This document shows positions 1,267-63,560 of a DNA stretch of 64,000 bases, one piece after another. This DNA comes from Arachis hypogaea (lineage: Eukaryota > Streptophyta > Magnoliopsida > Fabales > Fabaceae): NCBI RefSeq assembly GCF_003086295.3, contig NC_092051.1, positions 79,430,445-79,494,444 on the forward strand, given 5' to 3'. Each line of letters begins with the position of its first letter. The first letter of the stretch is position 1. The position numbers and the translations under genes are program-made. Below the pieces are notes generated by a model that saw nothing but the letters and a program-made list of their open reading frames with translations, searched no databases and had not been told where the DNA came from.

Positions 1267-1304
1267 CAACACCAAACTTAAAGTGTTGCTTGTCCCCAAG
1301 CAAC
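1267..1304 (-). other. GAGGAC-type hairpin plus PPT-like tract at the 3' LTR of Element 1
   Basis: On the minus strand the hairpin GTTGCTT-GGGGAC-AAGCAAC (1304-1285, seven perfect pairs, six-base loop) is followed by ACTTTAAGTTTGGTGTTG, which abuts the LTR start at 1266. This is where the plus-strand primer (polypurine tract) must lie in an LTR element. Confidence 0.75.
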
Positions 1305-2382
1305 TGAAAATCAAATAGGATAAAAAGAAGAGAATATACTATAAATTCCAAACTATCAATGAAACATGGCTCCAATAATATGAGCGGGACTTATAGCTTT
1401 TTGCCTCTTGAATAGTTTTGGCATCTCACTTTATCCATTGAGGTTCAGAATGATTGGCATCTATAGGAACTTCAGATTTCGAATAGTGTTATTGACTCTC
1501 CTAGTTCAGTATGATGATTCTTGAACACAGCTTCTTTATGAGTCTTGGCCGTGGCCCTAAGCACTTTGTTTTCTAGTATTACCACCGGATACATAAATGC
1601 CACAGACACATAATTGGGTGAACCTTTTCAGATTGTGACTCAGCTTTGCTAGAGTCCCCAATTAGAGGTGTCCAGGGTTCTTAAGCACACTCTTTGTTTT
1701 TGCTTTGGACCTTGACTTTAACCGCTCAGTCTCAAGTTTTCACTTGACACTTACACGCCACAAGCACATGGTTAGGGACAGCTTGGTTTAGCCGCTTAGA
1801 CCAGGATTTTATTCCTTTAGGCCCTCCTATCCACTGATGCTCAAAGCCTTGGGATCCTTTTTATTTGCCCTTGCGTTTTGGTTTTAAGGGTTATTGGCTT
1901 TTTCTGCTTGCTTTTTCTTTTTCTCTTTTTTTTTCGCCTATTTTTTCTTTTTTTTTTTCCTGCAAGCTTTGTTCTTTGCTGCTTTTTCTTGCTTCAAGAA
2001 TCATTTTTATGATTTTTCAGATTATCAAATAACATGTCTCCTAGTCATCATTCTTTCAAGAGCCAACATATTTAACATTCTTAAACAACAACTTCAAAAG
2101 ACATATGCACTGTTCAAGCATACATTCAGAAAACAAGAAGCATTGTCACCACATCAATATAATTAAACTAAGTTCAAGGATAAATTCGAAACTCATGTAC
2201 TTCTTGTTCTTTTGAATTAAAACATTTTTCATTTAAGAGAGGTGATGGATTCATAGGACATTTATATCTTTAAGACAAAGTTACTAACTACTAATGATCA
2301 TGTAATGAAGGCACAAACATAGATAAGCACATAATACAGAAAACGAAAAACAGAGAAAGCAAGAACAAGGAATGAATCCACC
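1305..2382 (-). other. Element 1 3' non-coding region with conserved block
   Basis: No credible ORF is present; the one at 1894-2166 (plus) is only a poly-T tract. The part at 1391-1862 is closely conserved with 10952-11405 (Element 2) and 30757-31225 (Element 4), including runs such as CCCTAACCATGTGCTTGTGG. Conservation without coding suggests a structural or replication role. Confidence 0.7.
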
Positions 2383-3534
2383 TTAGTGATGGTGGCGTTT
2401 CCTTCTTGAGGAACCAATGATGTCCTTGAGCTCTTCTATGTCTCTTCCTTGTCTTTGTTGCTCCTCCCTCATTGCTTTTTGATCTTCTCTTATTTCATGA
2501 AGCATGATGGAGTGCTCTTGATGTTCCACCCTTAGTTGTCCCATATTGGAACTCAATTCTCCTAGGGAGGTGTTGATTTGCTCCCAATAATTTTGTGGAG
2601 GAAAGTGCATTTGAGGCATCTCCGGGATCTCATGGAAATGAGCTTCTTGCGCCTCTTGAGCTCCATGATTGGGCTCTCTTGCTTGCTCCATCTTTTTCTT
2701 AGTGATGGGCTTGTCCTCTTTAATGAGGATATCTCCCTCTATGTCAATTCCAGCTGAATTGCATAGGTGGCAAATGAGGTGAGGAAAGACTAACCTTGCC
2801 ATGGTGGAGGACTTGTCAGCCACCTTGTAGAGTTCTTGAGGTATAATCTCATGAACTTCCACCTCTTCTCCAATCATGATGCTATGGATCATGATGGCCC
2901 GGTCTATAGTAAATTCAGACCGGTTGCTAGTGGGAATGATTGAGCATTGAATAAACTCCAACCATCCTCTAGCTATAGGCTTGAGGTCCAATCTTCTTAG
3001 TTGAACCAGCTTGCCTTTGGAGTCAATCTTCCATTGAGCTCCTTCTACACATATGTCCATAAGGACTTGGTCCAACCTTTGATCAAAGTTGACTCTCCTT
3101 GTGTAGGGGCGTGCGTTCTCTTCCATGTATGGCAAGTTGAACGCCAACCTCACATTCTCCGGACTAAAATCTAAGTATTTCCCCCGAACCATTGTAACAT
3201 AGTTCTTTGGATCCGGGTTCTTACTTTGATCATGGTTCTTGGTGATCCATGCATTGGCATAGAACTCTTGAACCATTAAGATGCCAACTTGTTGGATGGG
3301 GTTTGTTAGAACTTCCTAACCTCTTCTTTGAATTTCATGTCGGATCTCCGGATACTCATTTCTTTTGAGTTTAAAAGGGACCTCAGGGATCACCTTCTTC
3401 TTGGCCACAACATCATAGAAGTGGTCTTGATGGGCTTTGGAGATGAACCTTTCCATTTCCCATGACTCGGATGTGGAAGCTCCTGTCTTCCCTTTCCCCT
3501 TTTTAGAGGATTCTCCGGTCTTAGATGCCATCAA
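2383..3534 (-). pseudogene. Element 1 ORF2 (env-position plant retrotransposon protein), one internal stop
   Basis: A single minus-strand frame of 384 codons starts at the ATG at 3534 and is broken only by TAG at 3318-3316, where the copy in Element 4 has a Trp codon (TGG to TAG). The N-terminus is Ser/Lys-rich (KGKGKTGAST). A central globular part contains WEMERFISKAHQDHFYDV and a long segment with HLICHLCNSAGIDIE. The C-terminus is a predicted coiled coil rich in Glu/Gln, ending in Arg/His. The layout looks like the family often annotated as 'putative plant transposon protein', found at the env position of Athila elements; this is from memory. No signal peptide or membrane segment is visible, so an envelope function is not supported. 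Siblings are at 11929-13074 and 29134-30263. Confidence 0.8.
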
Positions 3535-3568
3535 TGGTAATGGAAAAACAAAAAAGCTATGCTTTTAC

Positions 3569-3605
3569 CACACCAAACTTAGAATATTGCTCGCCCTCGA
3601 GCAAT
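3569..3605 (-). other. GAGGAC-type hairpin upstream of ORF2, Element 1
   Basis: The minus-strand hairpin ATTGCTC-GAGGGC-GAGCAAT (3605-3586) is followed by ATTCTAAGTTTGGTGTGGT, about 35 bases before the ORF2 start. It has the same architecture as the PPT hairpin at 1304-1267. Confidence 0.75.
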
Positions 3606-4080
3606 AAACAAAAGAATAGAAGAAGAAGAAGAAGAAATATGGAGAGGGAGAGGGAGATGTGGTTTCGGCCAAGGAGAGTGTAGAGGGGTGTGTTGTGTGA
3701 ATTTGATGAAGAATGGAGGGCTTTATATAGGGAAGGGAAGGGGGGTTAAGGTTCGGCCATATGGGTGGGTTTGGGTGGGAAATTGGTTTTGAATTTTGAA
3801 GGTAGGTGGAGTTTATGAGGTAGGTTTATTGGGAAGAGTGGATGGATGTGAGTGGTGAAGAGGTGATGGGGAAGAGAGTTTGAGGTGATTGGTGAAGGGT
3901 TTTTGGGGAAGAGTGTTTATGGGGTTATGTGAAAGAGAGTGGTGAGAAGAAGTGAGTGGAGGTCTGAGTGGATCCTGTGGGGTCCATAGATCCTGAGTGG
4001 ATCCTCTGGGGTCCACAGATCCTGAGGTGTTCAAGGATTTACATCCCTGCACCCATTAGGCATGTAAAAATGCCTTTGTA
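3606..4080 (-). other. Pyrimidine-rich spacer between minisatellite and ORF2, Element 1
   Basis: On the coding (minus) strand this is C/T-rich with CTTCTTCTTCT runs and a TATATAAAG-like site near 3723-3730. No ORF is conserved with the sibling elements. It could be the promoter or leader for a separate ORF2 transcript, which is inference only. Confidence 0.5.
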
Positions 4081-4089
4081 CCCAACTCT

Positions 4090-4462: not shown

Positions 4463-6790
4463 TCACAGATGTGCAGAGCTTTGTTGAAACTCTCCAACAC
4501 CAAACTTAGAGTTTGGATATGGGAGTTCAACACCAAACTTAGAGTTTGGTTGTGGCCTCCCAACACCAAACTTAGAGTTTGACTGTGGGGGCTCTGGTTG
4601 ACTCTGCTTGGAGAGAAGCTTTTTCTGCTTCCTCTCCATGGTTGCAGAGGGAGATCCTTGAGTTTTAAACATAAGGGAGTTCTCATTCCATTAAAGGAAT
4701 AATTCACCACTGTCAACATCAATCATAGCTCTTGCTGTGGCCAGGAAAGGTCTTCCCAGGATGATGGGTTCATCCTCTTCCTTTCCAGTATCCAGGACTA
4801 TGAAATCAGTAGGTATGTAAAGGCCCTCAACCTTTACTAATACATCTTCTACTTGTCCATAAGCCTGTTTTCTTGAGCTGTCTGCCATCTCTAGTGAGAT
4901 TTTAGCAGCTTGCACCCCATAGATTCCCAGTTTCTCTATTACAGAGAGGGGCATGAGGTTTATTCCTGAACCAAGGTCACACAGAGCCTTAAAGATCATG
5001 GTGCCTATGGTGCAGGGTATTATGAACTTTCCAGGATCCTGTTTCTTCTGAGGCAATGTCAGTTGATCCAGATCACTTAGTTCATTGATGAACAAGGGAA
5101 GTTCAACTTCCCAAGTATCAATGTCAAATAATTTGGCATTCAGCTTCATGATTGCACCAAGAAACTTGGCAGTTTGCTCTTCAGTAACATCCTCATTCTC
5201 TTCAGAAGAGGAATACTCATCAGAGCTCATGAAGGGCATAAGAAGGTTCAATGGAATCTCTATGGTCTCTAGATGAGCCTCAGAGTCCTTTGGTTCCTCA
5301 GAGGGAAGCTCCTTATTGATCACTGGACGTCCCAGGAGGTCTTCCTCCTTGGGATTCACGTCCTCTCCTCTCCTCACAGGTTCGGCCATGGCGCTTATGT
5401 CAATGGCCTTGCACTCTCCTTTTGGGTTCTCTTCTGTATTGCTTGGGAGAGTACTAGGAGGGATTTCATTGATCCTTTTACTCAGCTGGCCCACTTGTGC
5501 TTCCAGATTTCTAATGGAAGACCTTGTTTCATTCATGAAACTTACAGTGGCCTTAGATAGATCAGATACTAGATTTGCTAAATTAGAGGCATTTTGTTCA
5601 GAGTTCTCTGTCTGTTGCTGAGTTGATGATGGAAAAGGCTTGCTATTGCTAAACCTGTTTCTTCCACCATTATTAAAGCCTTGTTGGGGCTTTTGATCCT
5701 TCCATGAGAAATTTGGATGATTTCTCCATGTTGAGTTATAGGTGTTTCCATAAGGTTCACCTAAGTAATTTACCTCTGCTATTGCAGGGTTCTCAGGATC
5801 ATAAGCTTCTTCTTCAGAAGATGCCTCTTGAGTACTGTTGGATGCAGCTTGCATTCCATGCAGACTCTGAGAAATCATATTGACTTGCTGAGTCAATATT
5901 TTATTCTGAGCCAATATGGCATTCAGAGTATCAACCTCAAGAACTCCCTTCTTCATAGGCGTCCCATTGCTCACAGGATTCCTTTCAGAAGTGTACATGA
6001 ACTGGTTATTAGCAACCATGTCAATGAGTTCTTGAGCTTCTGCAGGCGTTTTCTTTAGGTGAATGGATCCACCTGCAGAAGTGTCCAGTGACATCTTCGA
6101 TAGCTCAGATAAACCATCATAGAATATATCCAGGATGGTCCATTCTGAAAGCATGTCAGAAGGACACTTTTTGGTCAACTGTTTGTATCTTTCCCAAGCT
6201 TCATAGAGGGATTCACCTTCTTTCTGTCTGAAGGTTTGAACATCAGCTCTAAGCTTGCTCAGCTTTTGAGGAGGAAAGTACTTGGCTAAGAAAGCCGTGA
6301 CCAGCTTATCCCAAGAGTTCAGGCTGTCTTTGGGTTGAGAATCCAACCATAATCTAGCTCTGTCTCTTACAGCAAAAGGGAAAAGCATTAGCCTGTAGAC
6401 TTCAGGATCTACTCCATTAGTCTTAACAGTATCACATATCTGCAAGAATTCAGTTAAGAACTGAAAAGGATCTTCAGATGGAAGTCTATGAAACTTGCAG
6501 TTCTGCTGCATCAGAGAAACTAATTGAGGTTTCAGCTCAAAGTTGTTTGCTCCAATGGCAGGAATGGAGATGCTTCTTCCATGTAGTTTGGAATTAGGTG
6601 CAGTAAAGTCACCAAGCATCTTCCTTACATTATTATTATTTTCGGTTGCCGTCTCCTCTTCCTGTTCGAAAATTTCTGAAAGGTTATCTCTGGATTGTTG
6701 TATTTTAGCTTCTCTTAATTTTCTCTTCAGAGTCCTTTCAGGTTTTGGATCTGCTTCCACAAGAATGTTCTTATCCTTGCTCCTGCTCAT
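4463..6790 (-). pseudogene. Element 1 gag-protease polyprotein (699 aa open, then one stop before the C-terminal tail)
   Basis: The ATG at 6790 follows an in-frame Met-Ser-Arg-Ser-Lys start shared with siblings. The frame is open for 699 codons to TAG at 4693-4691, then continues in the same frame for a tail of three NSKFGV repeats to 4463. The capsid-like retrotransposon gag domain spans about residues 135-260 ([28 protein letters not shown]). A Gln/Asn-rich linker lies near 360-400. A retropepsin-like aspartic protease begins near residue 602, with catalytic CDLGSGINLM (Asp605) and the ILGRPF loop at about 677-682. I see no CCHC zinc knuckle. There is no frameshift and no RT downstream, so this is the complete first ORF of a non-autonomous element. 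It would form particles and self-process, while genome copying would need another element. The longest uninterrupted ORF is 4691-6790. Confidence 0.85.
4493..4580 (-). repeat. Three copies of an AACTCTAAGTTTGG palindrome coding for NSKFGV repeats
   Basis: Three roughly 33-base repeats lie in the tail of the gag-protease frame, each containing a near palindrome of the PPT-adjacent motif AAGTTTGGTGTTG. In frame they give three N-S-K-F-G-V units. Confidence 0.8.
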
Positions 6791-8880: not shown

Positions 8881-9859
8881 ATCTCAATACATAATTGTCA
8901 CAACTTCGATACAACTAACCAGCAAGTGCACTGGGTCATCCAAGTAATACCTTACGTGAGTAAGGGTCGAATCCCACGGAGATTGTTGGTATGAAGCAAG
9001 CTATGGTCACCTTGCAAATCTCAGTCAGGCAGATATAAAGTGATAATGGTGTTTTCGAATATTATATAATAAAATAGGGATAGAGATACTTATGTAATTC
9101 ATTGGTAGGAATTTCAGATAAGCGAATGGAGATGCTTTTCGTCCCTCTGAACCTCTGCTTTCCTGCTATCTTCACCCAGTCAGTCTTACTCCTTTCCATG
9201 GCTGGCTTTATGTGATACATCACCACTGTCAACGGCTACTTTCGGTCATCTCTCGGGAAAATGATCCAATGCCCTTTCACGGCACGGCTAATCATCTGTC
9301 GGTTCTCGATCATGCTGGAATAGGATTTACTATCCTTTTGCGTCTGTCACTAACGCCCTGCAATCGCGAGTTAGGAGCTCGTCACAGTCATTAAATCATT
9401 GAATCCTACTCGGAATACCACAGACAAGGTTTAGACCTTCCGGATTCTCTTGAATGCCGCCATCATTCTAGCTTACGCCACGAAGATTCTGGTTAGGAGA
9501 TCTAAGAGATATTCATTCTAGCTTAATTCATGTAGAACAGAAGTGTTTGTCAGGCACGCGTTCATAAGGGAGAAGGATGATGAGCGTCACACATAATCAT
9601 CACCTTCATCACGTTCTTGGGTGCGAATGGATATCTTAGAAGCGAAATAAGAAGAATTGAATAGAAAACAGTAGTACTTTGCATTAATCTTTGAGGAACA
9701 GCAGAGCTCCACACCTTAATCTATGGAGTGTAGAAACTCTACCGTATGAAAATACATAAGTGAAGGTCCAGGCATGGCCGAGATGGCCAGCCCCCTAAAA
9801 CGTGATCAAAGGATCATAAGGTAATCCAAAGATGGTCTAAAAGACAATAGTAAGAGGTC

Positions 9860-11928: not shown

Positions 11929-13074
11929 TTAGTGATGGCGGCTAGTTCTTCCTTTTGAAGATCTTATGGAGTGCTTGAGCTCCTCAATGTCTCTTCCTTG
12001 CCTTTGTTGCTCCTCTCTCATGACTCTTTGGTCTTCTCTATTTTCATGGAGGAGGATGGAATTCTCTTGGTGCTCCACCCTTAGTTGTCCCATGTTGGAA
12101 CTTAATTCTCCTAGGGAGGTGTTGATTTGCTCCCAATAGTTTTGTGGAGGAAAATGCATCCCTTGAGGCATCTCAGGGATTTCATGGTGAGGAATTTCCT
12201 CATGTCCATGAGTGGGATCTCTTGTTTGTTCCATCCTTTTCTTAGTGATGGGCTTATCCTCATCAATGAGGATGTCTTCCTCTATGTCAATTCCAGCTGA
12301 ATTGCAGAGGTGACAAATGAGATGAGGGAAGGCTAACCTTGCCAAAGTAGAGGACCTGTCCGCCACCTTGTAGAGTTCTTGGGATATAACTTCGTGAACT
12401 TCTACTTCCTCCCTAATCATGATGTTATGGATCATGATAGCCCATTCTATAGTAACTTCAGACTGGTTGCTAGTGGGAATGATTGAGCGTTGGATGAACT
12501 CCAACCATCCCCTAGCCACGGGCTTGAGGTCATGCCTTCTTAGTTGAACCAACTTTCCTCTTGAATTTCTTTTCCATTGAGTGCCCTCTTCACAGATGTC
12601 TATGAGGACTTGGTCCAACATTTGATCAAAGTTGACCCTTCTAGTGTAGGGGTGTGCATCTCCTTGCATCATGGGCAAGTTGAGTGCAAACCTTACATTC
12701 TCCAGACTAAAATCGAAGCATTTTCCCCGAACCATTGTAAGCCAATTCTTTGGGTCTGGGTTCACACTTTGATCATGGTTCTTGTTGATCCATGCATTGG
12801 CATAGAACTCTTGAACCATTAAGATTCCGACTTGTTAAATGGGGTTGGTGAGAACTTCCCAACCTCTTCTTCGAATCTCATGTCGGATCTCTGGATATTC
12901 ACCCTTTTTGAGTTTGAAAGGGACCTCGGGGATCACCTTCTTCTTGGCCACAACTTCATAGAAGTGGTCTTGGTGCACTCTTGAAATGAATCTCTCCATC
13001 TCCCATGACTCGGAGGTGGAAGCTTTTGCCTTCCCTTTCCTCTTTCTAGAGGTTTCTCCGGCCTTAGGTGCCAT
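11929..13074 (-). pseudogene. Element 2 ORF2, one internal stop
   Basis: The minus-strand frame runs from ATG 13074 (M-A-P-K-A-G-E-T-S) to 11929, 382 codons including stops. Its only break is TAA at 12837-12835, where siblings have a Gln codon (CAA to TAA). The parts match Element 1: a Lys/Ser-rich N-terminus, the segment WEMERFISRVHQDHFYEV, the region with HLICHLCNSAGIDIE, and a C-terminal coiled coil of Glu/Gln repeats ending in Arg-His-His. Nothing suggests a secreted or membrane protein. One stop in an otherwise full-length frame, while gag of the same element is badly broken, suggests either chance or longer selection on ORF2. The biochemical role is unknown. Confidence 0.8.
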
Positions 13075-13110: not shown

Positions 13111-13148
13111 CACACCAAACATAGAAAGTTTGCTCATCCTCGAGCAAA
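13111..13148 (-). other. GAGGAC-type hairpin upstream of ORF2, Element 2
   Basis: The minus-strand hairpin TTTGCTC-GAGGAT-GAGCAAA (13148-13129) is followed by CTTTCTATGTTTGGTGTG, just upstream of the ORF2 start. Confidence 0.75.
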
Positions 13149-19256: not shown

Positions 19257-19294
19257 ACCTCCCCACACTTAAACAATAGCATGTCCTCATGCTA
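19257..19294 (-). other. GAGGAC-loop hairpin plus polypurine tract, Element 3
   Basis: On the minus strand TAGCAT-GAGGAC-ATGCTA (19294-19277) is followed by TTGTTT and then AAGTGTGGGGAGGT directly against the LTR start at 19256. The purine run is a textbook PPT position. Confidence 0.85.
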
Positions 19295-20990: not shown

Positions 20991-21029
20991 ACCTCCCCAC
21001 ACTTAATATGAAGCATCGTCCCTGATGCT
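20991..21029 (-). other. GAGGAC-type hairpin at the end of ORF2, Element 3
   Basis: On the minus strand AGCATC-AGGGAC-GATGCT (21029-21012) is followed by TCATATTAAGTGTGGGGAGGT (split here: TCATAT then TTAAGTGTGGGGAGGT region). It lies three bases after the ORF2 stop and copies the layout of the true PPT at 19257-19294. Confidence 0.78.
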
Positions 21030-22612: not shown

Positions 22613-23011
22613 TGATGAGCGGATAATTTATACGCTTTTTGGCATTGTTTTTAGTATGTTTTTAGTATATTTTAGTTAGTTTTTATTATGTTTTTTAGTT
22701 TTTAAATAAAAATCACTCTTCTAGACTTTACTATGAGTTTGTGTGTTTTTCTGTAATTTCAGGTATTTTCTAGCTGAAATTGAGGGACTTGAGCAAAAAT
22801 CTGATTCAGAGGCTGAAAAAGGACTGCAGATGCTGTTGGATTCTGACCTCCCTGCACTCAAAGTGGATTTTCTGGAGCTACAGAAGCCCAATTGGCGCAC
22901 TCTCAATCGCGTTGGAAAATAGACATCCTGGGCTTTCCAACAATATATAATAGTCTATACTTTGCCCAAGATTTGATGGCCCAAATAGGCATTCCAAGTC
23001 AGCTCAAGAAT

Positions 23012-23091
23012 TCTGGCGTTTAACTCCAAAACTGGCACAAAAGCTGGAGTTAAACGCCCAAACTGGCACAAAAGCTGGCGTTTAACTCCAA
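23012..23091. repeat. Palindromic minisatellite in Element 4 5' LTR
   Basis: Half palindromes CTGGCGTTTAACTCC, TGGAGTTAAACGCC and CTGGCGTTTAACTCC alternate with AACTGGCACAAAAG spacers. The arms pair between neighbouring units. The matching array in the 3' LTR is 31742-31822. Confidence 0.85.
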
Positions 23092-23206
23092 GAAAAGTCT
23101 CTACACATGGAAGCTTCAATGCTCAGCCCAAGCACACACCAAGTGGTCCCGGAAGTAGATTTCTGCAATAATTACTGATTTCTGTAACCCTAGGCTACTA
23201 GTTTTC

Positions 23207-23215
23207 TATAAATAG
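23207..23215 (+). promoter_or_regulatory. TATA box of Element 4 5' LTR
   Basis: TATAAATAG lies in the conserved context TTTTCTATAAATAGGACC. It probably drives the genomic RNA. Confidence 0.6.
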
Positions 23216-24263
23216 GACCTTTTGCTATTGTATTTTTCATCTTGGAATCTTTGATAAGTCTTATGCTATCTTAGACACGTTTAGGGCTGGCCTCACGGCC
23301 ATGCCTGGACCTTGTTCTTATGTATTCTCAACGGTGGAGTTTCTACACACCATAGATTAAGGTGTGGAGCTCTGATGTTCTTCATGAATTAATACAAGTA
23401 CTATTGTTTTTCTATTCAACTCAAGTCTATTTCTTCTCCAAGATATTCATTCGTTCTTCAACTTGATGAATGTGATGATCCGTGACACTCATCATCATTC
23501 TCACCTATGAACATGTACCTGACAACCACCTCTGTTCTACTAGCAATGGCTTGAATGTGTATCTCTTGGGTTTCTAATCTAAGATTGGAACCTTCGTGGT
23601 ATAGGCTAAAATTATTGGCGGCCATTCCTGAGATCCGGAACGTCTAAACCTTGTCTGTGGTATTCTGAGTAGGATCTAGGAAGCGATGAGTGTGACGAGC
23701 TTCAAACTCGCGATTGTGGGGCGTGTGACAGACACAAAAGGATCAATGGATCCTATTCCGACATGATCGAGAACAGACAACTGATTAGCCGATGTTGTGA
23801 CAGAGCATCAGGACCATTTTCACTGAGAGGATGGGATGTAGCCATTGACAACGGTGATGCCCAACATAAAGCTTGCCATGGAAAGGAGTATGAATGATTG
23901 GAAGAAGGCAATAGGAAAGCAGAGGTTCAAGGGGAACAAAGCATCTTCATACGCCTATCTGAAATCCACCAATGAATTACATAAGTATCTCTATCTTTAT
24001 TTTATGTTTTATTCATCTTTTAATTATCAACCCTTCATCACCATTTGAATCTGCCTGACTGAGATTTACAAGATGACCATAGCTTGCTTCAAGCTGACAA
24101 TCTCCGTGGGATCGACCCTTACTCACGTAAGGTTTATTACTTGGACGACCCAGTGCACTTGCTGGTTAATTGTGCGGAATTGTGACAAAGTGTGATTCAC
24201 GTTTGAGAGCTCCAAGTCCTTTGGCGCCATTGTTGATGATCACAATTTCGTGCACCAAGTTTT

Positions 24264-29060: not shown

Positions 29061-29098
29061 TTGCTCGAGGACGAGCAACCTTCTAAGTTTGGTGTGGT
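29061..29098 (+). other. GAGGAC-loop hairpin upstream of ORF2, Element 4
   Basis: TTGCTC-GAGGAC-GAGCAA (29061-29078) is followed by CCTTCTAAGTTTGGTGTGG. It ends 35 bases before the ORF2 ATG. Confidence 0.8.
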
Positions 29099-29133: not shown

Positions 29134-30263
29134 ATGGCACCAAAGGCCGGAGAAACCTCTAGAAAGAGGAAAGGGAAGGCAAAAGCTTCTACCTCCAAGT
29201 CATGGAAGATGGACCGATTCCTCTCAAGGGTGCATCAAGACCACTTCTATGAAGTTGTGGCCAAGAAGAAAGTGATCCCCGAGGTCCCTTTCAAACTCAA
29301 AAAGAATGAGTATCCAGAGATCCGACATGAGATCCGAAGAAGAGGTTGGGAAGTTCTCACCAACCCCATTCAACAAGTCGGAATCTTAATGGTTCAAGAG
29401 TTTTATGCCAACGCATCGATCACCAAGAACCATGATCAAAGTGTGAACCCGGACCCTAAGAATTGGCTTACAATGGTTCGGGAGAATTACTTAGATTTCC
29501 GAAAAATGTAAGGTTGGCATTCAACTTGCCTATGATGCAAGGAGATGCACACGCCTACACTAGAAGGGTCAACTTTGATCTAAGGTTGGACCAAGTCCTC
29601 ATGGACATCTGTGAAGAGGGCGCTCAATGGAAGAGAGATTCAAGAGGGAAGCCGGTTCAACTAAGAAGGCATGACCTCAAGCCTGTGGCTAGGGGATGGT
29701 TGGAGTTCATCCAACATTCAATCATTCCCACTAGCAACCGGTCCGAAGCTACTATAGACTGAGCTATCATGATACATAGCATCATGATTGGAGAGGAAGT
29801 GGAAGTTCATATGGTTATATCCCAAGAACTCTACAAGGTGGTGGACAAGTCCTCCACTGTGGCAAGGTTAGCCTTCCCTCATCTCATTTGTCACCTCTGC
29901 AATTCGGCTAGAATTGACATAGAGGAAGACATCCTCATTGATGAGGACAAGCCCATCACTAAGAAAAGGATGGAGCAAACAAGAGATCCCACTCATGGAC
30001 AAGAGCATGAGGAATTTCCTCATCATGAAATCCCTGAGATACCTCCACAAAACTATTGGGAGCAAATCAACACCTCCCTAGGAGAATTATTTTCCAACAT
30101 GGGACAACTAAGGGTGGAGCACAAAGAGCATTCCATCCTCCTCCATGAAATTAGAGAAGATCAAAGAACCATGAGAGAGGAGCAACAAAGGCAAGGAAGA
30201 GACATTGAGGAGCTCAAGCACTCCATAAGATCTTCAAGAGGAAGAACAAGCCGCCATCACTAA
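29134..30263 (+). pseudogene. Element 4 ORF2, one frameshift and one stop
   Basis: It starts at ATG 29134 (M-A-P-K-A-G-E-T-S-R-K-R-K-G-K). A four-base loss near 29500, compared with Element 1, shifts the frame. The second piece (29463-29762) ends in TGA at 29760-29762, where siblings have Arg or Trp. The third piece (29769-30263) runs to the normal stop. Features are the Lys-rich start, HQDHFYEVVAKKKVIPEVPF, LDQVLMDICEEGAQW, HLICHLCNSARIDIE, and a C-terminal Glu/Gln coiled coil ending SRHH. Length and layout equal the copies in Elements 1 and 2. The role is unknown. It occupies the env position but shows no signal peptide or membrane anchor. Confidence 0.82.
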
Positions 30264-31303: not shown

Positions 31304-31341
31304 GTTGCTTGGGGACAAGCAACAATTTAAGTTTGGTGTTG
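31304..31341 (+). other. GAGGAC-type hairpin plus PPT-like tract, Element 4
   Basis: GTTGCTT-GGGGAC-AAGCAAC (31304-31323) is followed by AATTTAAGTTTGGTGTTG, ending at the 3' LTR start (31342). Confidence 0.82.
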
Positions 31342-32955
31342 TGATGAGCAGATAATTTATACGCTTTTTGGCATTGTTTTTAGTATGTTTTTAGTATATT
31401 TTAGTTAGTTTTTATTATGTTTTTATTAGTTTTTAAATAAAAATCACTCTTCTGGACTTTACTATGAGTTTGTGTGTTTTTCTGTAATTTCAGGTATTTT
31501 CTGGCTGAAATTGAGGGACCTGAGCAAAAATCTGATTCAGAGGCTGAAAAAGGACTGCAGATGCTGTTGGATTCTGACCTCCCAGCACTCAAAGTGGATT
31601 TTCTGGTGCCATAGAAGCCCAATTGGGGCGCTCTTAATTGCGTTGGAAAATAGACATCTTGGGCTTTCCAGCAATATATAATAGTTCATACTTTGCCCAA
31701 GATTTGATTGCCAAAACAGGCGTTCCAAGTCAGCTCAAGAATTCTAGCGTTTAACTCCAAAACTGGCACAAAAGCTGGAGTTAAACGTCCAAACTGGCAC
31801 AAAAGCTGGCGTTTAACTCCAAGAAAAGTATTTACACATGGAAGCTTCAATGCTCAGCCCAAGCAATCACCAAGTGGGCCCGGAAGAAGATTTCTGTAAC
31901 CCTAGGCTACTAGTTTTCTATAAATAGGACCTTTTGGTATTGTATTTTTCATCTTGGAATCTTTGATAAGTCTTATGCTATCTTAGACACGTTTGGGGCT
32001 GGCCTCACAGCCATGCCTGGACCTTGTTCTTATGTATTCTCAACGGTGGAGTTTCTACACACCATAGATTAAGGTGTGGAGCTCTGCTGTTCTTCATGAA
32101 TTAATACAAGTACTATTGTTTTTCTATTCACTCAAGTCTATTTCTTCTCCAAGATATTCATTCGTTCTTCAACTTGATGAATGTGATGATCCGTGACACT
32201 CATCATCATTCTCACCTATGAACATGTGCCTGACAACCACCTCTGTTCTACTAGCAATGGCTCTTGGGTTTCTAATCTAAGATTGGAACCTTCGTGGTAT
32301 AGGCTAGAATTATTGGCGGCCATTCCTGAGATTCGAAACGTCTAAACCTTGTCTGTGGTATTCTGAGTAGGATCTGGGTAGGGATGACTGTGACGAGCTT
32401 CAAACTCGCGATTGTGGGGTGTGTGACAGACGCAAAAGGATCAATAGATCCTATTCCGACATGATCGAGAACCGACAGCTGATTAGCCGATGTTGTGACA
32501 GAGCATCAGGACCATTTTCACTGAGAGGACGGGATGTAGCCATTTACAATGGTGATGCCCAACATAAAGCTTCCCATGGAAAGGAGTATGAATGATTGGA
32601 AGAAGACAATAGGAAAGCAGAGGTTCAAGGGGAACAAAGCATCTTCATACGCTTATCTGAAATCCATCAATGAATTACATAAGTATCTCTATCTTTATTT
32701 TATGTTTTATTCATCTTTTAATTATCAACCCTCCATCACCATTTGAATCTGCCTGACTGAGATTTACAAGATGACCATAGCTTGTTTCAAGCCGACAATC
32801 TCCGTGGGATCGACCCTTTCTCACGTAAGGTTTATTACTTGGACGACCCAGTGCACTTGCTGGTTAGTTGAGCGGAATTGTGACAAAGTGTGATTCACGT
32901 TTGAGAGCTCCAAGTCCTTTGGCGGCATTGTTGATGATCACAATTTCGTGCACCA
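31342..32955 (+). repeat. Element 4 3' LTR
   Basis: It starts TGATGAGCAGATAATTTAT and ends CGTGCACCA, 1614 bases. A TATA box is at 31919-31927 and half-palindromes are at 31742-31822. It is followed at once by the TSD GGATT. Confidence 0.95.
31919..31927 (+). promoter_or_regulatory. TATA box of Element 4 3' LTR
   Basis: TATAAATAG lies in the same context as 23207-23215. Transcription from here would read out into Element 3. Confidence 0.55.
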
Positions 32956-46445: not shown

Positions 46446-46577
46446 ATGGCCACCAAGAAGGGTAAAGAGAAAGCTACTCCCAAATCACCGTCAAGGAAAG
46501 GAACAAAAAGAGCCCCAGTTGAAGCAACCCGTCCACTTGTATATCTCAGCATGCACCGAGGACGGTGCAATCTTTAA
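46446..46577 (+). pseudogene. Element 6 ORF2 stub (large internal deletion)
   Basis: ATG 46446 opens a 43-codon frame beginning M-A-T-K-K-G-K-E-K-A, a Lys-rich start like that of other ORF2 copies (M-D-T-K-K-E-K-E-K in Element 5). It then jumps to the hairpin region, and the TAA stop (46575-46577) lies inside the TTTAAGTGTGG tract. The whole globular part present in Elements 3 and 5 is missing, apparently by one internal deletion. It is therefore not expected to make a functional ORF2 protein. Confidence 0.7.
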
Positions 46578-47871: not shown

Positions 47872-47909
47872 TAGCATGAGGACATGCTATTGTTTAAGTG
47901 TGGGAAGGT
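47872..47909 (+). other. GAGGAC-loop hairpin plus PPT, Element 6
   Basis: TAGCAT-GAGGAC-ATGCTA (47872-47889) is followed by TTGTTT and AAGTGTGGGAAGGT, which abuts the 3' LTR at 47910. Confidence 0.87.
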
Positions 47910-51523: not shown

Positions 51524-52804
51524 ATGGATACCAAGAAAGAAAAAGAGAAGTTCACTGACAAGACACCAGCAAGGAGAGGAACCAAGAGAACACTGGCGAA
51601 AGCACCTCCATCCACCAGTGTAAAGCCACCAACAAAGCGGGTGAAGAGGATCATTAAAGTTGATGAATCAGAAAAAGCTTTTCCGGCCCGAGACTCCACA
51701 CTGTTTACTAACCACTATTGCGAACAGATGTTCCTCATCCTAGCTGAGAGGAACTACAACAATGAGTATCTACTCATTGTCCCAACACACGTTGTTGATT
51801 TTTTGGAGCCCCGCATAGAGAGGAGACAGTGGGGATTTTTGAGGAGACAGCCGCGAGAGGCGAACCTATCATGGGTCGTTATGTTCTACTCAAACTTCCA
51901 CTCGCCTACTCTGCAGACTGTCTTCGTCCGTCAACAGCAGGTCCCTGTATCCGACAGTGCCATACAGAGAGCACTGGATCTTCCACCTAGTCCAGAGGGA
52001 TGGGACGTTTATCAAAAAGCCTCTTCCAAGCACCAGACATACCAGTTTGGCTAGAGTAGCGTCTTTGGTGTCATAGCACAACTTGGCAGTAAGTGGATCT
52101 ACGGATAGCATAGGACTCGGCCTAAGAGCATCTCAGCCCAGTCACTCACCTTGGAGGCTCCCATGTGGGCACAAATTATGTCCCACTATGTCTTTCTGAG
52201 CACTCACGAGTTGACCTTCACAGCAGACATGGTTGTCCTCACCTGGTGCATCCTGACAGAGCAACCCTTCAACCTGCCCTGACACATCCAGGCTGCCATG
52301 GGACACGTACAGATAGTGGGTAACCTGCTATTTCCCGCCTTGGTTTCAGATTTAGTCTCTACAGCAGGTGTGTCCTCTCGGGCAGGTGACACGAAGGTCA
52401 TGATCCCGATAGTCGACCAGTATATCCCGAACGGGAAGTACATCAGGCCGTCAGTTCCCACTGCGAGCCGGCCTACAGGCCCATCTTTGGACACTCCTCC
52501 TTCTTCTACTCCACCATCATCTACACCACAAGCACTATCTACCCATCAGATGTTCCTTCAGATCCTTAACAGGCTCGACCGGCAAGACCGGTGAATGGAG
52601 CAAATGGGGCGCTGTAACAAGCACCGATACGACTACCTGAAGGAACTCATACTTGGTACACACCCACCTCCAGAACCAAAGGACACTCCAGATTCCGCTT
52701 CATCCAGTAGCACAGGCAGCCAAGGCGAACCAGACACTGGAGGCGACACTTCCAGCCCTCCCTTGCTCCTTACTGATAGCACGAAGGATCGTGCCAAGCT
52801 TTAA
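51524..52804 (+). pseudogene. Element 5 ORF2 (env-position protein), several in-frame stops
   Basis: One frame of 427 codons runs from ATG 51524 (M-D-T-K-K-E-K-E-K-F) to TAA 52802-52804. Stops at about 52052, 52106, 52280 and 52592 interrupt it but there is no frameshift. The N-terminus is Lys/Arg/Thr-rich. The core has FTNHYCEQMFLILAERNYNN, LSWVVMFYSNFHSPTL and VPVSDSAIQRALDLPPSPEG. The end is Pro/Ser/Thr-rich. This is the pattern of the plant retrotransposon protein family found in this position in Athila elements (from memory). It is homologous in layout to 21033-22484. No signal peptide or membrane anchor is visible, so the name 'env-like' rests on position only. Confidence 0.78.
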
Positions 52805-54220: not shown

Positions 54221-54258
54221 TAGCATGAGGACATGCTAATGTTTAAGTATGGGGAGTT
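54221..54258 (+). other. GAGGAC-loop hairpin plus PPT, Element 5
   Basis: TAGCAT-GAGGAC-ATGCTA (54221-54238), then ATGTTT and AAGTATGGGGAGTT directly before the LTR. Confidence 0.87.
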
Positions 54259-55872: not shown

Positions 55873-55904
55873 TAGCCTCTTCACGTGAATTGCTTAAGTC
55901 TCAG

Positions 55905-57988: not shown

Positions 57989-60900
57989 ATGGACATAAGT
58001 GGAAATGAACAGTCCAGGAGGACTCTGGGGTCATTCTAACCCCTCTACTGCTTCATATGGGAGTATCATATGCATACCCTCCATTGGAGTTAGTAGCTTT
58101 GAGTTGAATCCTCAGCTCATTATCATGGTGCAGCAAAGTTGCCAGTATTCCGGTCTTCCACAGGAAGAACCTATAGAGTTTCTGGCACAATTTTTACAAA
58201 TTGCTGACACAGTACATGATAAGGAAATAGATCAGGATGTCTACAGACTATTACTGTTTCCATTTGCTGTAAAAGATCAAGCTAAGAGGTGGTTAAATAA
58301 CCAACCTAAGGCCAGCATAAGAACATGGAAACAGCTGACAGAAAAATTCCTGAATCAGTATTTTCCTCCAAAAAGGATGACACAGCTAAGGCTGGACATC
58401 CAAGGCTTTAAACAAGGAGATAATGAATCTCTTTATGATGCCTGGGAGAGATACAGAGAGATGCTACGAAAATGCCCCTCTGAAATGTTTTCAGAGTGGG
58501 TTTAGTTAGACATCTTCTACTATGGGCTTGCAGAAGGAGCTCAGATGTCTCTAGATTACTCAGCTGGTGGATCTATCCATATGAGAAAGACAATTGAAGA
58601 GGCTCAAGAGCTCACTGATACAGTTGCCAGGAATCAGCATCTGTATCTAAGCAGCAACCCTTCCATGAATGAAGAGGTTAAAACAGTAACTGCTGAATTC
58701 AGTACTGTAAAACAAGCTGCTGAATTCAATCGGCAATTGGATTTTCTAACAAAGCAGCTAGCTGAATTCAAGGACAGGCTACAGGAGACAAGGATAGCTA
58801 ATATACATATGGACGAACAGTTTAAGCAAACAAAGCAGCAGCTATCAAGGCAAATAGCAGAAGAATGCCAAGCAGTTCAATTAAGAAGTGGGAAAACATT
58901 AAATACCCCACCTCAAGGCATCAAAAATTCAAGAAATGAGCAACCCACCAAAGATTCACCTGAGGACAGTAAGAGCCCAGGGAAAAATAATTCTGGCACT
59001 AAAATGCCAGAAAATGGGTGGAAGGCTGGTGCTGAACGCCCAGACCATGCCCAAAACTGGCGTTCAGCGCTAGAAATAAGGCAGGATTGGCGTTCAATGC
59101 CAGAAATGGGCAAGAATCTGGCGTTGAACGCCCAAATGGGGCAGAATCCAGCGTTGAACGCCCAAAATGGGTACATTTCTGGCGTTCAGGCGCCAGGAAC
59201 AGACAGTGAGCTGGCGTCTAACGTCACTCCAGCTTCTGACTCTAGCACTCAATTGCCAGTGAGGGATCAGACACACACAAGTGCTGATAACAACCCCTCT
59301 AAAAAGGCTTCTTTAACCACTAAGGTTGAGGAATATAAAGCCAAGATACCTTATCCTCAAAAACTCCGGAAAGAGGAGCAGGATAAGCAATTTGCTCGCT
59401 TTGCAGATTATCTAAGGACTCTTGAAATAAAGATTCCATTTACAGAGGCACTTGAGCAAATACCTTCTTATGCCAAGTTCATGAAAGAGATCTTGAGTCA
59501 TAAAAAGGAGTGAAGAGAAACAGAAAGAGTTCTCCTCACTGAAGTATGCAGTGCAGTCATTCTGAAAAGCTTTCCTGAAAAGCTTAAAGACCCTGGGAGT
59601 TTTCTGATACCATGCATATTAGAAGGTGATTGCACCAAGACAGCTTTATGCGATCTTGGGGCAAGCATCAACCTGATACCTGCATCCACTATCAGGAAGC
59701 TTGGCTTAACTGAAGAAGTTAAACCAACCCGGATATGTCTCCAACTTGCTGATGGTTCCACTAAATACCCATCAGGCGTGATTGAGGACATGATTGTCAG
59801 AGTTGGGCCATTCGCCTTTCCTACTGACTTTGTTGTGCTGGAAATGGAGGAGCACAAGAGTGCTACTCTCATTCTAGGAAGACCCTTCCTAGCAACTGGA
59901 CGATCCCTCATTGATGTCCAACAGGGGGAAATAACCCTGAGAGTCAATGATGATGAGTTTAAGTTGAACGCTGTCAAAGCCATGCAGCATCCAGACACAT
60001 CAACAGACTGCATGAAAGTTGATCTCATTGACTCTTTGGTAGAAGAGATCAACATGGCTGAGAGTCTCGAATCAGAGTTGGAAGACATCTTTAAAGATGT
60101 TCAGCCTGATTTGGAGGATTCAGAGGACATGAAAGATCCTCTGAACTTTCTTCTGAAAGAGGAAAAACCTCCTAAACCCGAGCTCAAGCCACTACCACCA
60201 TCCTTGAAATACGCATTTCTGGGAGAAGGTGACACTTTTCCAGTGATCATAAGATCTGCTTTAAATTCACAGGAAGAGGAAGCACTTATTCAAGTGCTAA
60301 GGACACATAAGACAGCTCTTGGGTGGTCCATAGGTGACCTTAAGGGCATAAGCCCAGCTAGATGCATGCACAAAATCCTATTGGAGGATAATGCCAAACC
60401 AGTGGTTCAACCACAGAGGCGGCTAAATCCAGCCATGAAGGAAGTGGTGCAGAAAGAGGTCACCAAATTACTAGAGGCTGGGATTATTTATCCCATTTCT
60501 GATAGCCCCTGGGTGAGCCCTGTTCAAGTCGTCCCAAAAAAGGGAGGCATGACAGTGATTCATAATGAAAAAAATGAACTGGTTCCTACAAGAACAGTTA
60601 CAGGGTGGCGCATGTGTATTGACTACAGAAGGCTCAATACAGCCACCAGAAAGGATCATTTTCCTTTACCATTCATAGACCAGATGCTAGAGAGACTAGC
60701 AGGTCATGATTATTACTGCTTTTTGGATGGCTATTCAGGCTATAACCAGATTGCAGTGGATCCCCAGGATCAAGAGAAAACAGCATTCACATGTCCATCT
60801 GGAGTGTTTGCTTATAGAAGGATGCCATTTGGGCTATGTAATGCGCCTGCAACCTTCCAGAGATGCATGCTCTCTATTTTCTCTGACATGGTGGAAAAAT

Positions 60901-63068
60901 TTCTGGAAGTCTTCATGGATGACTTCTCAGTATATGGAGACTCATTCAGCTCCTGTCTTGATCACCTGAAACTTGTTCTGAAAAGATGCCAAGAAACCAA
61001 CCTAGTTTTAAACTGGGAAAAGTGTCACTTCATGGTGACTGAAGGAATTGTTCTTGGGCATAAAATCTCAAACAAGGGAATAGAGGTGGATCAAGCAAAA
61101 ATAGAGGTAATTGAAAAATTACCACCACCTGCCAATGTTAAGGCAATCAGAAGCTTTCTGGGGCATGCAGGATTCTATAGGAGGTTTATAAAGGATTTTT
61201 CAAAAATCGCAAAACCTCTAAGCAATCTGCTAGCTGCTGACACGCCATTTGTGTTTGACACAGCATGCCTGCAGGCGTTTGAAACGCTGAAAGCTAAGCT
61301 GGTCACAGCACCAGTCATTTCTGCACCAGACTGGACATTGCCATTTGAGTTAATGTGTGATGCCAGTGATCATGCCATTGGTGCAGTATTGGGACAGAGG
61401 CATGACAAGCTTCTGCATGTCATTTATTATGCCAGTCGCGTTCTAAATGATGCCCAGAAAAATTACACAACCACAGAAAAAGAACTACTTGCAGTGGTTT
61501 ACGCCATTGACAAGTTCAGATCATACTTAGTAGGATCAAAAGTGATTGTGTATACTGACCATGCTGCTCTTAAATATCTACTCACAAAGCAGGATTCAAA
61601 ACCCAGGCTCATCAGATGGGTATTACTTCTGCAAGAGTTTGATATAGAAATAAGAGACAGAAAAGGGACAGAGAACCAAGTGGCTGATCATCTGTCCCGG
61701 ATAGAGCCAGTGGAAGGGACGTCCCTCCCCTTTCTTGAGATCTCTGAGACGTTCCCTGACGAGCATCTATTTGCCATTCAGGAAGCACCATGGTTTGCCG
61801 ATATTGCAAACTATAAAGCTGCACGGTTCATACCCAAGGAGTACAATAGAATACAAAAGAAGAAATTAGTCACTGATGCAAAGTACTACTTGTGGGATGA
61901 ACCCTATCTCTTTAAGAGATGTGCAGACGGAATTATCCGTAGGTGTGTCCCCAGAGAGGAAGCACAGAGAATCCTATGGCATTGCCACGGATCTCAATAT
62001 GGAGGCCATTTCGGAGGTGAGCGAACAGCCACCAAGGTCCTCCAATGTGGCTTCTATTGGCCCACACTCTATAAAGATTCCCGAGAGTTTGTACGTAATT
62101 GTGACAGTTGCCAAAGAGCTGGTAATCTGCCTCATGGTTACGCCATGCCTCAACAAGGAATCTTGGAAATTGAGTTGTTTGACGTATGGGGAATTGACTT
62201 CATGGGACCTTTTCCACCATCATATTCAAACACTTATATTCTGGTGGCAGTTGACTATGTATCAAAATGGGTTGAGGCTATTGCCACACCCACCAATGAT
62301 ACTAAAACAGTGCTGAAGTTCCTCCAGAAACATATCTTTAGCAGGTTTGGTGTCCCTAGAGTGTTAATCAGTGATGGGGGCACTCACTTCTGCAATAAAC
62401 AGCTTTACTCTGCCATGGTTCGGTATGGAATTCGCCACAAGGTGGCCACTCCATATCATCCACAAACCAATGGGCAAGCTGAAGTCTCTAACAGAGAATT
62501 AAAGAGAATCCTGGAACGGACAGTAAATACCCGTAGAAAGGATTGGGCACGAAGCTTGGATGATGCTCTGTGGGCTTACAGAACAGCATTCAAGACCCCT
62601 ATAGGGACCTCTCCATACCAACTCGTGTATGGTAAGGCATGTCACCTGCCCATGGAACTGGAACACAAGGCCTACTGGGCAACCAGATTCCTAAACTTTG
62701 ATGCCAAACTAGCAGGAGAAAAATGATTGCTCCAGCTAAATGAGCTAGAGGAATTCAGATTCACAGCTTTCGAAAATGCCAAGCTTTATAAAGAAAAATA
62801 AAAAAAATGGCATGACAGAAAGCTGTCATCTAGAATCTTTGAACCAGGACAGAAGGTTCTGTTGTTTAACTCTAGACTCAGGCTATTCCCCGGGAAACTG
62901 AAATCCCGGTGGAGGGGACCATACGTGATTACAAGTGTATCACCATATGGTTATATGGAGCTTCAAGATATTGATTCTGATAAGAAGTTCATTGTCAATG
63001 GACAGAGAATCAAGCATTATCTTGAGGGCAACATTGAGCAAGAATGCTCAAGGCTGAAGCTAGATTAA
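57989..63068 (+). pseudogene. Element 7 gag-pol polyprotein (gag, protease, RT, RNase H, integrase), few breaks
   Basis: ATG 57989 opens M-D-I-S-G-N-E-Q. A small deletion near 58034 shifts the frame, and the new frame then holds to 63068. Stops are at 58503, 59511, 62724 and 62799. The gag domain (RLLLFPFAVKDQAKRW; SLYDAWERYREML) is at about 58230-58490. A linker carrying the GGCGTT repeat in frame follows (58991-59225). Protease has [10 protein letters not shown] (Asp at 59652) and [12 protein letters not shown] has [11 protein letters not shown] and FMDDFSVYG (Asp pair 60918-60923). RNase H has [28 protein letters not shown] and [11 protein letters not shown]. Integrase has the zinc region ([16 protein letters not shown]), then Asp 62196, Asp 62373 and Glu 62481 (DD35E), and the GPY module (RWRGPYVI). 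The stretch 59778-62726 alone is an open 982 codons. Gag and pol share one frame, so no recoding is needed between them. Confidence 0.9.
58991..59225 (+). repeat. GGCGTT palindrome array translated in frame inside gag of Element 7
   Basis: About ten units (GCTGAACGCC, TGGCGTTCAGCGC, CTGGCGTTGAACGCCC, CTGGCGTTCAGGCGCCAG) stand within the polyprotein frame without shifting it. They code for repeats like N-L-A-L-N-A-Q-M-G and W-R-S-A-L/W-R-S-M-P. The unit spacing is mostly a multiple of three. Confidence 0.87.
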
Positions 63069-63109
63069 AAGCTCAGCAAGGTCCAGCTAAAGACAATAAA
63101 GAAGCGCTT

Positions 63110-63127
63110 GCTGGGAGGCAACCCAGC
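63110..63127 (+). other. AGGCAA-loop hairpin after pol, Element 7
   Basis: GCTGGG-AGGCAA-CCCAGC has six perfect pairs and is preceded by AAGAAGCGCTT, 41 bases after the polyprotein stop. The stem differs from siblings at both sides in a compensating way. Confidence 0.82.
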
Positions 63128-63274
63128 CATGGGGCAACAATCCTCTAAGCATTTTGCCCTATTTTTATTTTTATTTGTTTATATAAAGTTCACTGACACT
63201 AAGGTAAAGAATCATTTGCATAAGTTTACAGGGTTACAGAAGGAATCTACACACAAAACAGAGATAGGGAGCTT

Positions 63275-63476
63275 ACTGGCAAGAAAACGCCAGTGAAGGC
63301 CATTTTGGGCGTTCAGCACCCAAAATGGGCATCCAGTGGGCGCTGAACGCCAGTAAGGATAGCTATCTGGCGTTCAACGCCAGAAAGGGGCAACAACTGG
63401 GCGTTGAACGCCCAGGAGAGCAGCATTTGGGCGTTGAACGCCCAAAACAGGCAGTGTTTGGGCGTTCAAACGCCAG
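63275..63476. repeat. Palindromic GGCGTT minisatellite after pol, Element 7
   Basis: About nine units, such as GGGCGTTCAGCACCC, GGCGCTGAACGCCAG, CTGGCGTTCAACGCCAG and GGGCGTTGAACGCCC, with spacers like AAGGGGCAACAA. Confidence 0.9.
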
Positions 63477-63521
63477 GATGGTGGGGAGGAGCTCTCCTTC
63501 TACCCATCTCCTTCTTTTTCT

Positions 63522-63560
63522 TTTGCTTGAGGACAAGCAAAGCTCTAAGTTTGGTGTGCT
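63522..63560 (+). other. GAGGAC-loop hairpin upstream of ORF2 remnant, Element 7
   Basis: TTTGCTT-GAGGAC-AAGCAAA (63522-63541) is followed by GCTCTAAGTTTGGTGTGCT, 20 bases before the ATG at 63581. Confidence 0.82.

What the first reader, a model, noticed from the sequence alone, without database searches (positions are those of the whole stretch)
1267..63560. A hexaloop hairpin (GAGGAC class) with compensating stem changes, twelve copies in seven elements
Every element has a 16-20 base hairpin with a six-base loop of the GAGGAC type. Stems seen: GTTGCTT/AAGCAAC (1285-1304, 31304-31323), ATTGCTC/GAGCAAT (3586-3605), TTTGCTC/GAGCAAA (13129-13148), TTGCTC/GAGCAA (29061-29078), TTTGCTT/AAGCAAA (63522-63541), TAGCAT/ATGCTA (19277-19294, 47872-47889, 54221-54238), AGCATC/GATGCT (21012-21029), TGCACC/GGTGCA (46552-46569), GCACG/CGTGC (52779-52794). 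Loops: GAGGAC six times, GGGGAC twice, and GAGGGC, GAGGAT, AGGGAC and AAGGAT once each. Stem sequence varies while pairing is kept, which argues for selection on structure. Each is followed within about ten bases by TTAAGT(T/G)TGG-type sequence. It may guide plus-strand priming, RNA export, packaging or ORF2 expression.
Basis: seen in the sequence. Interest (0 to 1): 0.88.

Follow-up and report, generated by a model that had tools for sequence, protein, structure and literature searches.

The report
Paired hairpin-and-box units in peanut retrotransposons
Peanut jumping genes carry two copies of a small RNA hairpin set at a fixed distance in front of the short sequence where their second DNA strand probably starts to be copied, one copy beside the end of the element and one further in, and the hairpin's pairing has been kept while its letters changed.

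Summary
All 12 hairpins are where stated; a blind scan finds these 12 and no others, against 0.64 expected. Most fold as a closed RGGR tetraloop rather than a hexaloop. The following "TTAAGT(T/G)TGG" box is the PPT position: one unit abuts the 3' LTR (in E4 the LTR ends are fixed by a GGATT target duplication); a second unit lies 1.1-2.3 kb upstream (27 pairs). Each unit is a pyrimidine-rich tract, the hairpin, 11-13 nt from loop to box, then AAGTNTGG.

In 100 copies fetched by stem-free anchors, 78 keep all six pairs. Genome-wide one inner pair is T-A 24,641 and C-G 14,051 times, T·G 741, C×A 670. The inner unit persists in 8 of 14 linkers without an ORF of 80 aa, which speaks against a role in ORF2 expression.

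Best reading: a structured plus-strand origin present twice per element. An extra PPT is reported for Athila4/Calypso (PMC2829016); I found no print of the hairpin. Priming was not shown. The host is very probably peanut.

The parts
1285..1304 (-). E1 LTR-side hairpin, stem 7 bp, loop GGGGAC
1267..1279 (-). E1 box AAGTTTGGTGTTG (PPT position) directly abutting the 3' LTR
11..1266 (-). E1 3' LTR (69-1266 pairs with 9272-10438 at 95.5% identity; 11-1266 aligns to other family I LTRs)
3586..3605 (-). E1 inner hairpin, loop GAGGGC; box at 3570-3580
2386..3315 (-). E1 ORF2, Pfam PF20167 (Transposase_32), between the two hairpin units
13129..13148 (-). E2 inner hairpin, loop GAGGAT; box (ATGTTTGGTGT) at 13112-13122
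11932..12834 (-). E2 ORF2 (PF20167)
19277..19294 (-). E3 LTR-side hairpin, stem TAGCAT/ATGCTA; box 19257-19270, LTR 17780-19256
21012..21029 (-). E3 inner hairpin, stem AGCATC/GATGCT, loop AGGGAC; box 20991-21004
22613..24257 (+). E4 5' LTR, preceded by target duplication GGATT, followed 6 nt on by PBS-like TGGCGCCGTTGCCGGGGA
29061..29078 (+). E4 inner hairpin, loop GAGGAC; box 29085-29095
29763..30260 (+). E4 ORF2 fragment (PF20167, below curated cut-off)
31304..31323 (+). E4 LTR-side hairpin, loop GGGGAC
31329..31341 (+). E4 box AAGTTTGGTGTTG (PPT position); LTR starts at 31342
31342..32955 (+). E4 3' LTR, followed by target duplication GGATT
46552..46569 (+). E6 inner hairpin, stem TGCACC/GGTGCA; box 46576-46589, followed by a second stem GGAGGTCG/CGATCTCC (46584-46603)
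47872..47889 (+). E6 LTR-side hairpin, stem TAGCAT/ATGCTA; box 47896-47909, LTR from 47910
52779..52794 (+). E7 inner hairpin, stem GCACG/CGTGC, loop AAGGAT (A-U closing pair); box 52803-52816
54221..54238 (+). E7 LTR-side hairpin; box 54245-54258 (AAGTATGGGGAGTT, same 14 letters as the inner box), LTR from 54259
59514..62723 (+). E8 pol ORF (protease, RT, one RNase H region, integrase)
63522..63541 (+). E8 inner hairpin, loop GAGGAC; box 63547-63557; its LTR-side partner lies outside the window (L009)

Best explanation
The hairpin is part of a structured plus-strand origin of these Ty3/gypsy (Athila-like) elements, and the origin is present twice in each complete element. Each unit is, 5' to 3': a pyrimidine-rich tract, a 6-7 bp hairpin with an RGGR loop, a short spacer of nearly fixed length, and the box AAGTNTGG that ends at (outer copy) or mimics (inner copy) the PPT/3' LTR junction. 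Proposed working: reverse transcriptase copies the RNA from the 3' LTR inward, passes the box and then meets the hairpin; the structure, with the box, marks where RNase H leaves or makes the RNA primer for the plus strand. The outer copy starts the plus strand at the LTR; the inner copy gives a second, central start. Shown here: anatomy, spacing, duplication, covariation. Inferred: that the box is the primer, that the hairpin acts in priming, and that the inner copy primes.
For: LTR edge fixed by a target duplication, with the box abutting it (E4). All 12 window hairpins precede a box. Of 34 LTR-edge and 30 inner boxes, 31 and 26 have all six stem pairs, against 0 of 61 other box-like sites. 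Loop-to-LTR distance 25 or 26 nt in 33 of 34. Inner and outer boxes match: the identity run from AAGT is 11 of 13 nt in 19 of 27 pairs and reaches the LTR boundary in 6 of 27; in E3 and E7 it is 14 letters although the stems differ. In six representatives of each class identity upstream is 0.23-0.43, in the box 0.84. Pyrimidine content just 5' of the hairpin: 73% (24 distinct outer) and 88% (25 distinct inner) against 51% at 48 other sites. Inner unit kept without an ORF of 80 aa in 8 of 14 linkers. Covariation: and genome counts.
Against: No priming was measured. The box is not a polypurine tract in family I (AAGTTTGGTGTTG). Family I carries further AAGTTTGGTGT copies in the leader and in a coding 33-bp repeat with no such hairpin, so the box may have another role. 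In a finished RNA:DNA hybrid an RNA hairpin would not be formed, so it must act during copying. Single-copy fold z-scores are modest. Covariation is not significant within the family II LTR-side class by haplotype (386 of 2000 shuffles reach it), and family I LTR-side copies hardly vary. Related copies inflate the shuffle tests. In E1 the inner and outer copies also resemble each other 32-60 nt upstream of the box (0.60-0.80), so there the unit is not a clean island.
Confidence: 0.6

Rival explanations
1. The hairpin is a Gag/nucleocapsid binding site (packaging or RNA chaperoning): an exposed-G tetraloop on a short stem, like known packaging hairpins of retroviruses (recalled: HIV-1 SL3 with GGAG).
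For: Exact RRGGRY loop in 96 of 100 fetched copies; RGGR-type tetraloop fold in 10 of 12.
Against: Packaging signals usually sit near the 5' end (recalled); in the window no such hairpin is found outside the two box sites. The near-constant spacing to the box is not needed for packaging.
Confidence: 0.15
2. Cis-element for ORF2 expression (splice acceptor, internal start or reinitiation).
For: The inner unit lies 5' of ORF2 in elements that have it; a pyrimidine tract precedes it.
Against: Inner unit present in 8 of 14 linkers without any sense ORF of 80 aa or more; an equal unit lies directly before the 3' LTR. In E7 a weak PF20167 piece (51482-52051) lies upstream of the inner unit. By inspection no constant AG follows the pyrimidine tract.
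Confidence: 0.07
3. DNA-level site: a dyad read by a protein in double-stranded or single-stranded DNA.
For: A perfect inverted repeat at fixed position works as DNA too; copies are very many.
Against: In E6, E7 and L036 the 5' arm letters of inner and outer copies are almost entirely different (identity 0-0.17) while dyad and loop type are kept, unlike a protein-read palindrome; the GAGGAC side is always on the element's sense strand.
Confidence: 0.1
4. No function: inherited sequence plus chance; the pairing reflects common ancestry only.
For: Mispaired wobble and mismatch states are about equally frequent (741 and 670), as in decaying copies. Related copies inflate shuffle tests. Family II LTR-side haplotypes are not significant.
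Against: Inner class of family II: 148 double-change pairs against a shuffle mean of 26.6, none of 2000 reaching it. Paired states exceed mispaired ones 38,692 to 1,411 at one pair.
Confidence: 0.08

Closest known systems
Extra PPT in the pol-3' LTR linker of Athila4 and Calypso (Wright and Voytas 2002, as cited in PMC2829016, passages read)
   Same: Ty3/gypsy elements with an additional ORF region and a second PPT-like site in the linker
   Different: In the passages I read no hairpin before either site is mentioned; the original paper was not held, so it may describe more
Sirevirus multiple PPTs with an inverted repeat at the terminal PPT/LTR junction (PMC2829016, passages read)
   Same: Repeated plus-strand sites in the linker; secondary structure proposed to help RNase H choose the primer
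   Different: Ty1/copia; there the right arm lies in the LTR and upstream PPTs lack the repeat. Here both arms lie upstream of the box and the inner copy has the hairpin too
Internal PPT of HIV-1 and of Ty1 (mentioned in PMC2829016; details recalled)
   Same: A second, internal plus-strand start
   Different: Those are purine-rich, within the coding region and shown by experiment. Here the box is purine-poor in family I, lies between pol and the 3' LTR, and has not been tested
Ty3 PPT (PMC5371799, passages read)
   Same: Same superfamily; PPT at the PPT/U3 junction
   Different: 12-nt purine run, no central PPT identified; no upstream hairpin in the passages read

Membership tests
Ty3/gypsy, Athila clade | RT, RNase H and integrase in Ty3/gypsy order | tested here: met
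   E8 pol: protease, RVT_1, RT_RNaseH, H2C2, rve in this order. Family II not typed: 10 pieces gave no pol domain, one a weak PF20167 match; the third LTR family was not tested
Ty3/gypsy, Athila clade | No second (archaeal-type) RNase H, which marks Tat (PMC6317226, passages) | tested here: met
   Only one RNase H region found in E8 pol; E8 only
Ty3/gypsy, Athila clade | Placement on an RT tree | not tested
   Homologues found but no tree with named Athila and Tat references was built
Ty3/gypsy, Athila clade | PBS for tRNA-Asp a few bases after the LTR (PMC1142308, passages: 5 bp) | tested here: inconclusive
   TGGCGCCGTTGCCGGGGA 6 nt after the E4 LTR; match to tRNA-Asp recalled, not computed
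Ty3/gypsy, Athila clade | Extra ORF between pol and the 3' LTR | tested here: inconclusive
   PF20167 ORF in E1, E2, L013, L016, L022, weaker in E4; no sense ORF of 80 aa or more in the linkers of E8, L034, L037, L001, E3, E6, E7, L036
Sirevirus-type PPT inverted repeat | Right arm inside the 3' LTR | tested here: not met
   Both arms of the hairpin lie upstream of the box in the LTR-side copies examined. A separate family II pairing across the junction is predicted
Polypurine tract | Purine run at the primer | tested here: not met
   Family I box AAGTTTGGTGTTG is 7 of 13 purines; family II AAGTGTGGGGAGGT does have a GGGGAGG run
Central PPT | Plus-strand start and overlap or gap at the site | not testable with these tools
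   Needs natural extrachromosomal DNA

The most novel reading that the evidence does not exclude
In these elements the plus-strand primer is chosen by RNA structure rather than by a polypurine run: reverse transcriptase stalls at the hairpin and its trailing RNase H cuts a fixed distance behind, at or near the box/LTR junction. The stem base lies 18 nt from the LTR in 26 of 34 copies and 20 nt in 4; HIV-1 RT spacing is 17-18 (recalled), Ty3's about 13, which would cut some 5 nt short. A second such device inside the element makes a central start and perhaps a DNA flap.
Probability: 0.2. Interest if true: 0.8.

Novelty: new variant of a known kind. Interest (0 to 1): 0.58.

Why it matters
Plus-strand priming is understood from purine-rich tracts. 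Here is a very abundant element group in one plant whose priming site is purine-poor in one large family yet sits at near-fixed distance from a covarying hairpin, twice per element. It makes the question of why Athila-type elements carry an extra PPT directly testable, and gives a short, searchable mark (hairpin plus box) for the 3' end and inner boundary of such elements, including ones that lack pol.

Tried and rejected
Sequence search in papers (GAGGACAAGC): 116 papers, the 20 listed unrelated. Literature searches for a hairpin at an Athila PPT or a central PPT in plants; nothing describing this hairpin in the listings or in the passages read (PMC1142308, PMC2829016, PMC11963269, PMC6317226, PMC5371799). 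Wright and Voytas 2002, Havecker 2004 and two peanut retrotransposon papers that I recalled were not held. Rfam: no family at the hairpins. Splice-acceptor reading: dropped, no constant AG by inspection. Hexaloop: replaced by tetraloop. The first covariation script let in five non-hairpin sites and was replaced, which classes boxes by what follows them. Within family II LTR-side copies the haplotype shuffle test is negative; the copy-level association at the outer pair (Fisher 3e-4, one G·A copy left out of the table) counts relatives as independent.
Full report
Setting. Among the 120 relatives listed (of 7,942 found) for the RT region of its one long pol ORF, the highest identities, 97-99%, are to Arachis proteins, mostly A. 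hypogaea, so the host is very probably peanut. Self-comparison shows nested LTR elements, which I number E1, E2, E3, E4, E6, E7 and E8. E4 appears to sit inside E3, whose two LTRs (17780-19256 and 36594-38067, 96% identical) lie on either side of it. E1 and E4 look non-autonomous: their gag or gag-protease ORFs carry no RT or integrase match, and the elements go on to ORF2; E2 was not tested for this but is 90% identical to E4 over 6.4 kb. E8 has protease, RT, RNase H and integrase.

The observation. All 12 hairpins are there. A blind scan for RRGGRY with a perfect stem of at least 5 bp finds these 12 and no others, against a shuffle mean of 0.64. Folding closes positions 1 and 6 of the 'hexaloop' as a pair in 10 of 12, leaving a tetraloop; in 52779 that closing pair is A-U instead of G-C. 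At the five LTR-side hairpins in the window every frame is closed within 123 nt upstream.

What it is attached to. E4's ends are fixed by the target duplication GGATT, and the 3' LTR starts directly after hairpin-AATTTAAGTTTGGTGTTG. So the 'TTAAGT' box is the PPT position. I anchored on the box alone in 32 sources (the window, L001, L008 and L009-L037; L002-L007 left out as overlapping) and classed sites by what follows the box. Then 31 of 34 LTR-edge sites and 26 of 30 inner sites have all six stem pairs, and 0 of 61 other box-like sites do. The inner class was recognised by downstream letters that I had already seen. L001, L008 and L010-L028 were fetched because they hold one hairpin; in the unselected sources (window, L029-L037) the counts are 10 of 12 and 10 of 12. 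Copies short of six pairs are one with a shortened loop (L018), two in L029 with the same mismatch, and L012, L028, L030 and E7's inner copy. Over 25 distinct haplotypes, 138 of 150 cells pair (shuffle mean 94, maximum 115), with 629 double-change pairs (mean 116, maximum 316).

Geometry. Loop end to LTR is 25 nt in 28, 26 in 5 and 24 in 1 of 34 edges; stem base to LTR is 18 nt in 26 of 34 and 20 in 4. The 27 inner-outer pairs lie 1134-2301 bp apart. From AAGT the inner and outer boxes agree for 11 of 13 letters in 19 pairs, up to or past the LTR boundary in 6, and for 9 letters in 2. E3 and E7 agree for 14 letters although their stems differ. In six representatives of each class, mean pairwise identity is 0.23-0.43 upstream, 0.84 in the box and 0.28-0.30 just downstream, rising to 0.53 inside the LTR of the outer set. 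The exception is E1, whose inner and outer copies also resemble each other 32-60 nt upstream of the box (0.60-0.80). A pyrimidine-rich tract lies directly 5' of the hairpin at both sites and not at the other boxes. Of 14 linkers examined (E8's in two pieces), 8 (E8, L034, L037, L001, E3, E6, E7, L036) have no sense ORF of 80 aa or more and keep the inner unit; 6 have one, which carries PF20167 in E1, L013, L016 and L022 and weakly in E4 (L035 not tested).

Genome-wide tests. With stem-free anchors the genome holds 24,135 family I edges, 12,634 family II edges and 18,183 family II inner sites. I fetched 20 of the first 22 listed (one of them, L086, overlaps L022), the first 40, and 40 of the first 42, all on contig C1. 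All six pairs are kept in 17 of 20, 30 of 40 and 31 of 40 (78 of 100), and the exact RRGGRY loop in 96 of 100. L092 has its 5' half replaced by unrelated sequence. Among 21 inner haplotypes there are 148 double-change pairs against a shuffle mean of 26.6 (maximum 88; 0 of 2000 reach it). The 13 family II edge haplotypes are not significant (386 of 2000), although by copy the outer pair is T-A 21, A-T 11, A·A 4, T·T 3, G·A 1. Family I edges hardly vary and say nothing. One inner pair counted over the whole genome in a 14-base context: T-A 24,641, C-G 14,051, T·G 741, C×A 670; I did not check that each hit stands before a box. Wobble and mismatch are about equal, as expected if mispaired copies are mostly decayed fossils. 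The two paired states mark different lineages and sites, so this may be few events seen many times. Of 40 family II edges, 23 have an exact inner anchor on the same strand 1403-1776 bp upstream; one has an anchor on the wrong side and one on the opposite strand.

A further structure. In family II inner sites the letters GGAGGTCG at the end of the box pair with a downstream arm whose letters vary: 19 of 33 distinct copies make 8 or more pairs, against 6% with the downstream part shuffled. The 5' arm was fixed by the anchor. Family I edges show nothing comparable.

How it most likely works. I read the unit as a plus-strand origin made of structure plus box, present at the LTR and again further in. 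An extra PPT is already reported for Athila4 and Calypso, according to PMC2829016 (passages read). The same paper says that in Ty1 the PPT alone does not suffice and that nearby structure may guide RNase H. The new points are the hairpin, its covariation, its near-fixed distance and its presence at both sites. The ruler idea (RT stalls at the stem, RNase H cuts behind) is a guess: 18-20 nt fits the HIV-1 spacing that I recall, but Ty3's is given as about 13 bp (PMC5371799, passages).

Limits. No priming, probing or expression data; no other plant DNA in the collections, so the claim is for one genome; phylogeny-aware covariation testing was not possible; Athila membership rests on the domain order and the lack of a second RNase H in E8, without a tree.

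Noticed in passing
26472-26579 (-), 6149-6256 (+), 15655-15762 (+): Rfam snoR71 (plant C/D snoRNA) matches above the gathering score, full model length, in three elements and antisense to the element; the E4 and E1 copies lie within the gag reading frame. Either a gag-derived snoRNA family or a family contaminated by retrotransposon sequence.
   Followed up: no
28169-28245 (+); 13988-14065 (-); 4497-4573 (-): Three 33-bp repeats of the box motif AAGTTTGGTGT in E4, E2 and E1, behind CAAACTTT or a close variant (near-palindrome), readable as a repeated KFGV peptide after gag in E4 and E1; in E2 the third repeat is out of frame.
   Followed up: partly
57217, 57391, 57460, 57550, 24738 (+); [quoted passage not shown]
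   Followed up: partly
46584-46603 (+); L098-L137: Second stem in family II inner units: GGAGGTCG pairs with a varying downstream arm.
   Followed up: partly
47896-47920, 19245-19270; L038-L077: In family II the PPT letters can pair with the first bases of the LTR (for example GTGGGG with CCCCAT), similar to the Sirevirus inverted repeat.
   Followed up: partly
51482-52051 (+): In E7 a weak PF20167 match (below the curated cut-off) lies upstream of the inner hairpin unit, unlike E1, where ORF2 lies downstream.
   Followed up: no
L001, L008, L010, L011, L026, L028: A further LTR type starting TGATGCGTGAG or TGATGCATGAG with the same outer hairpin unit, and an inner unit in L001, L008 and (broken stem) L028.
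   Followed up: partly
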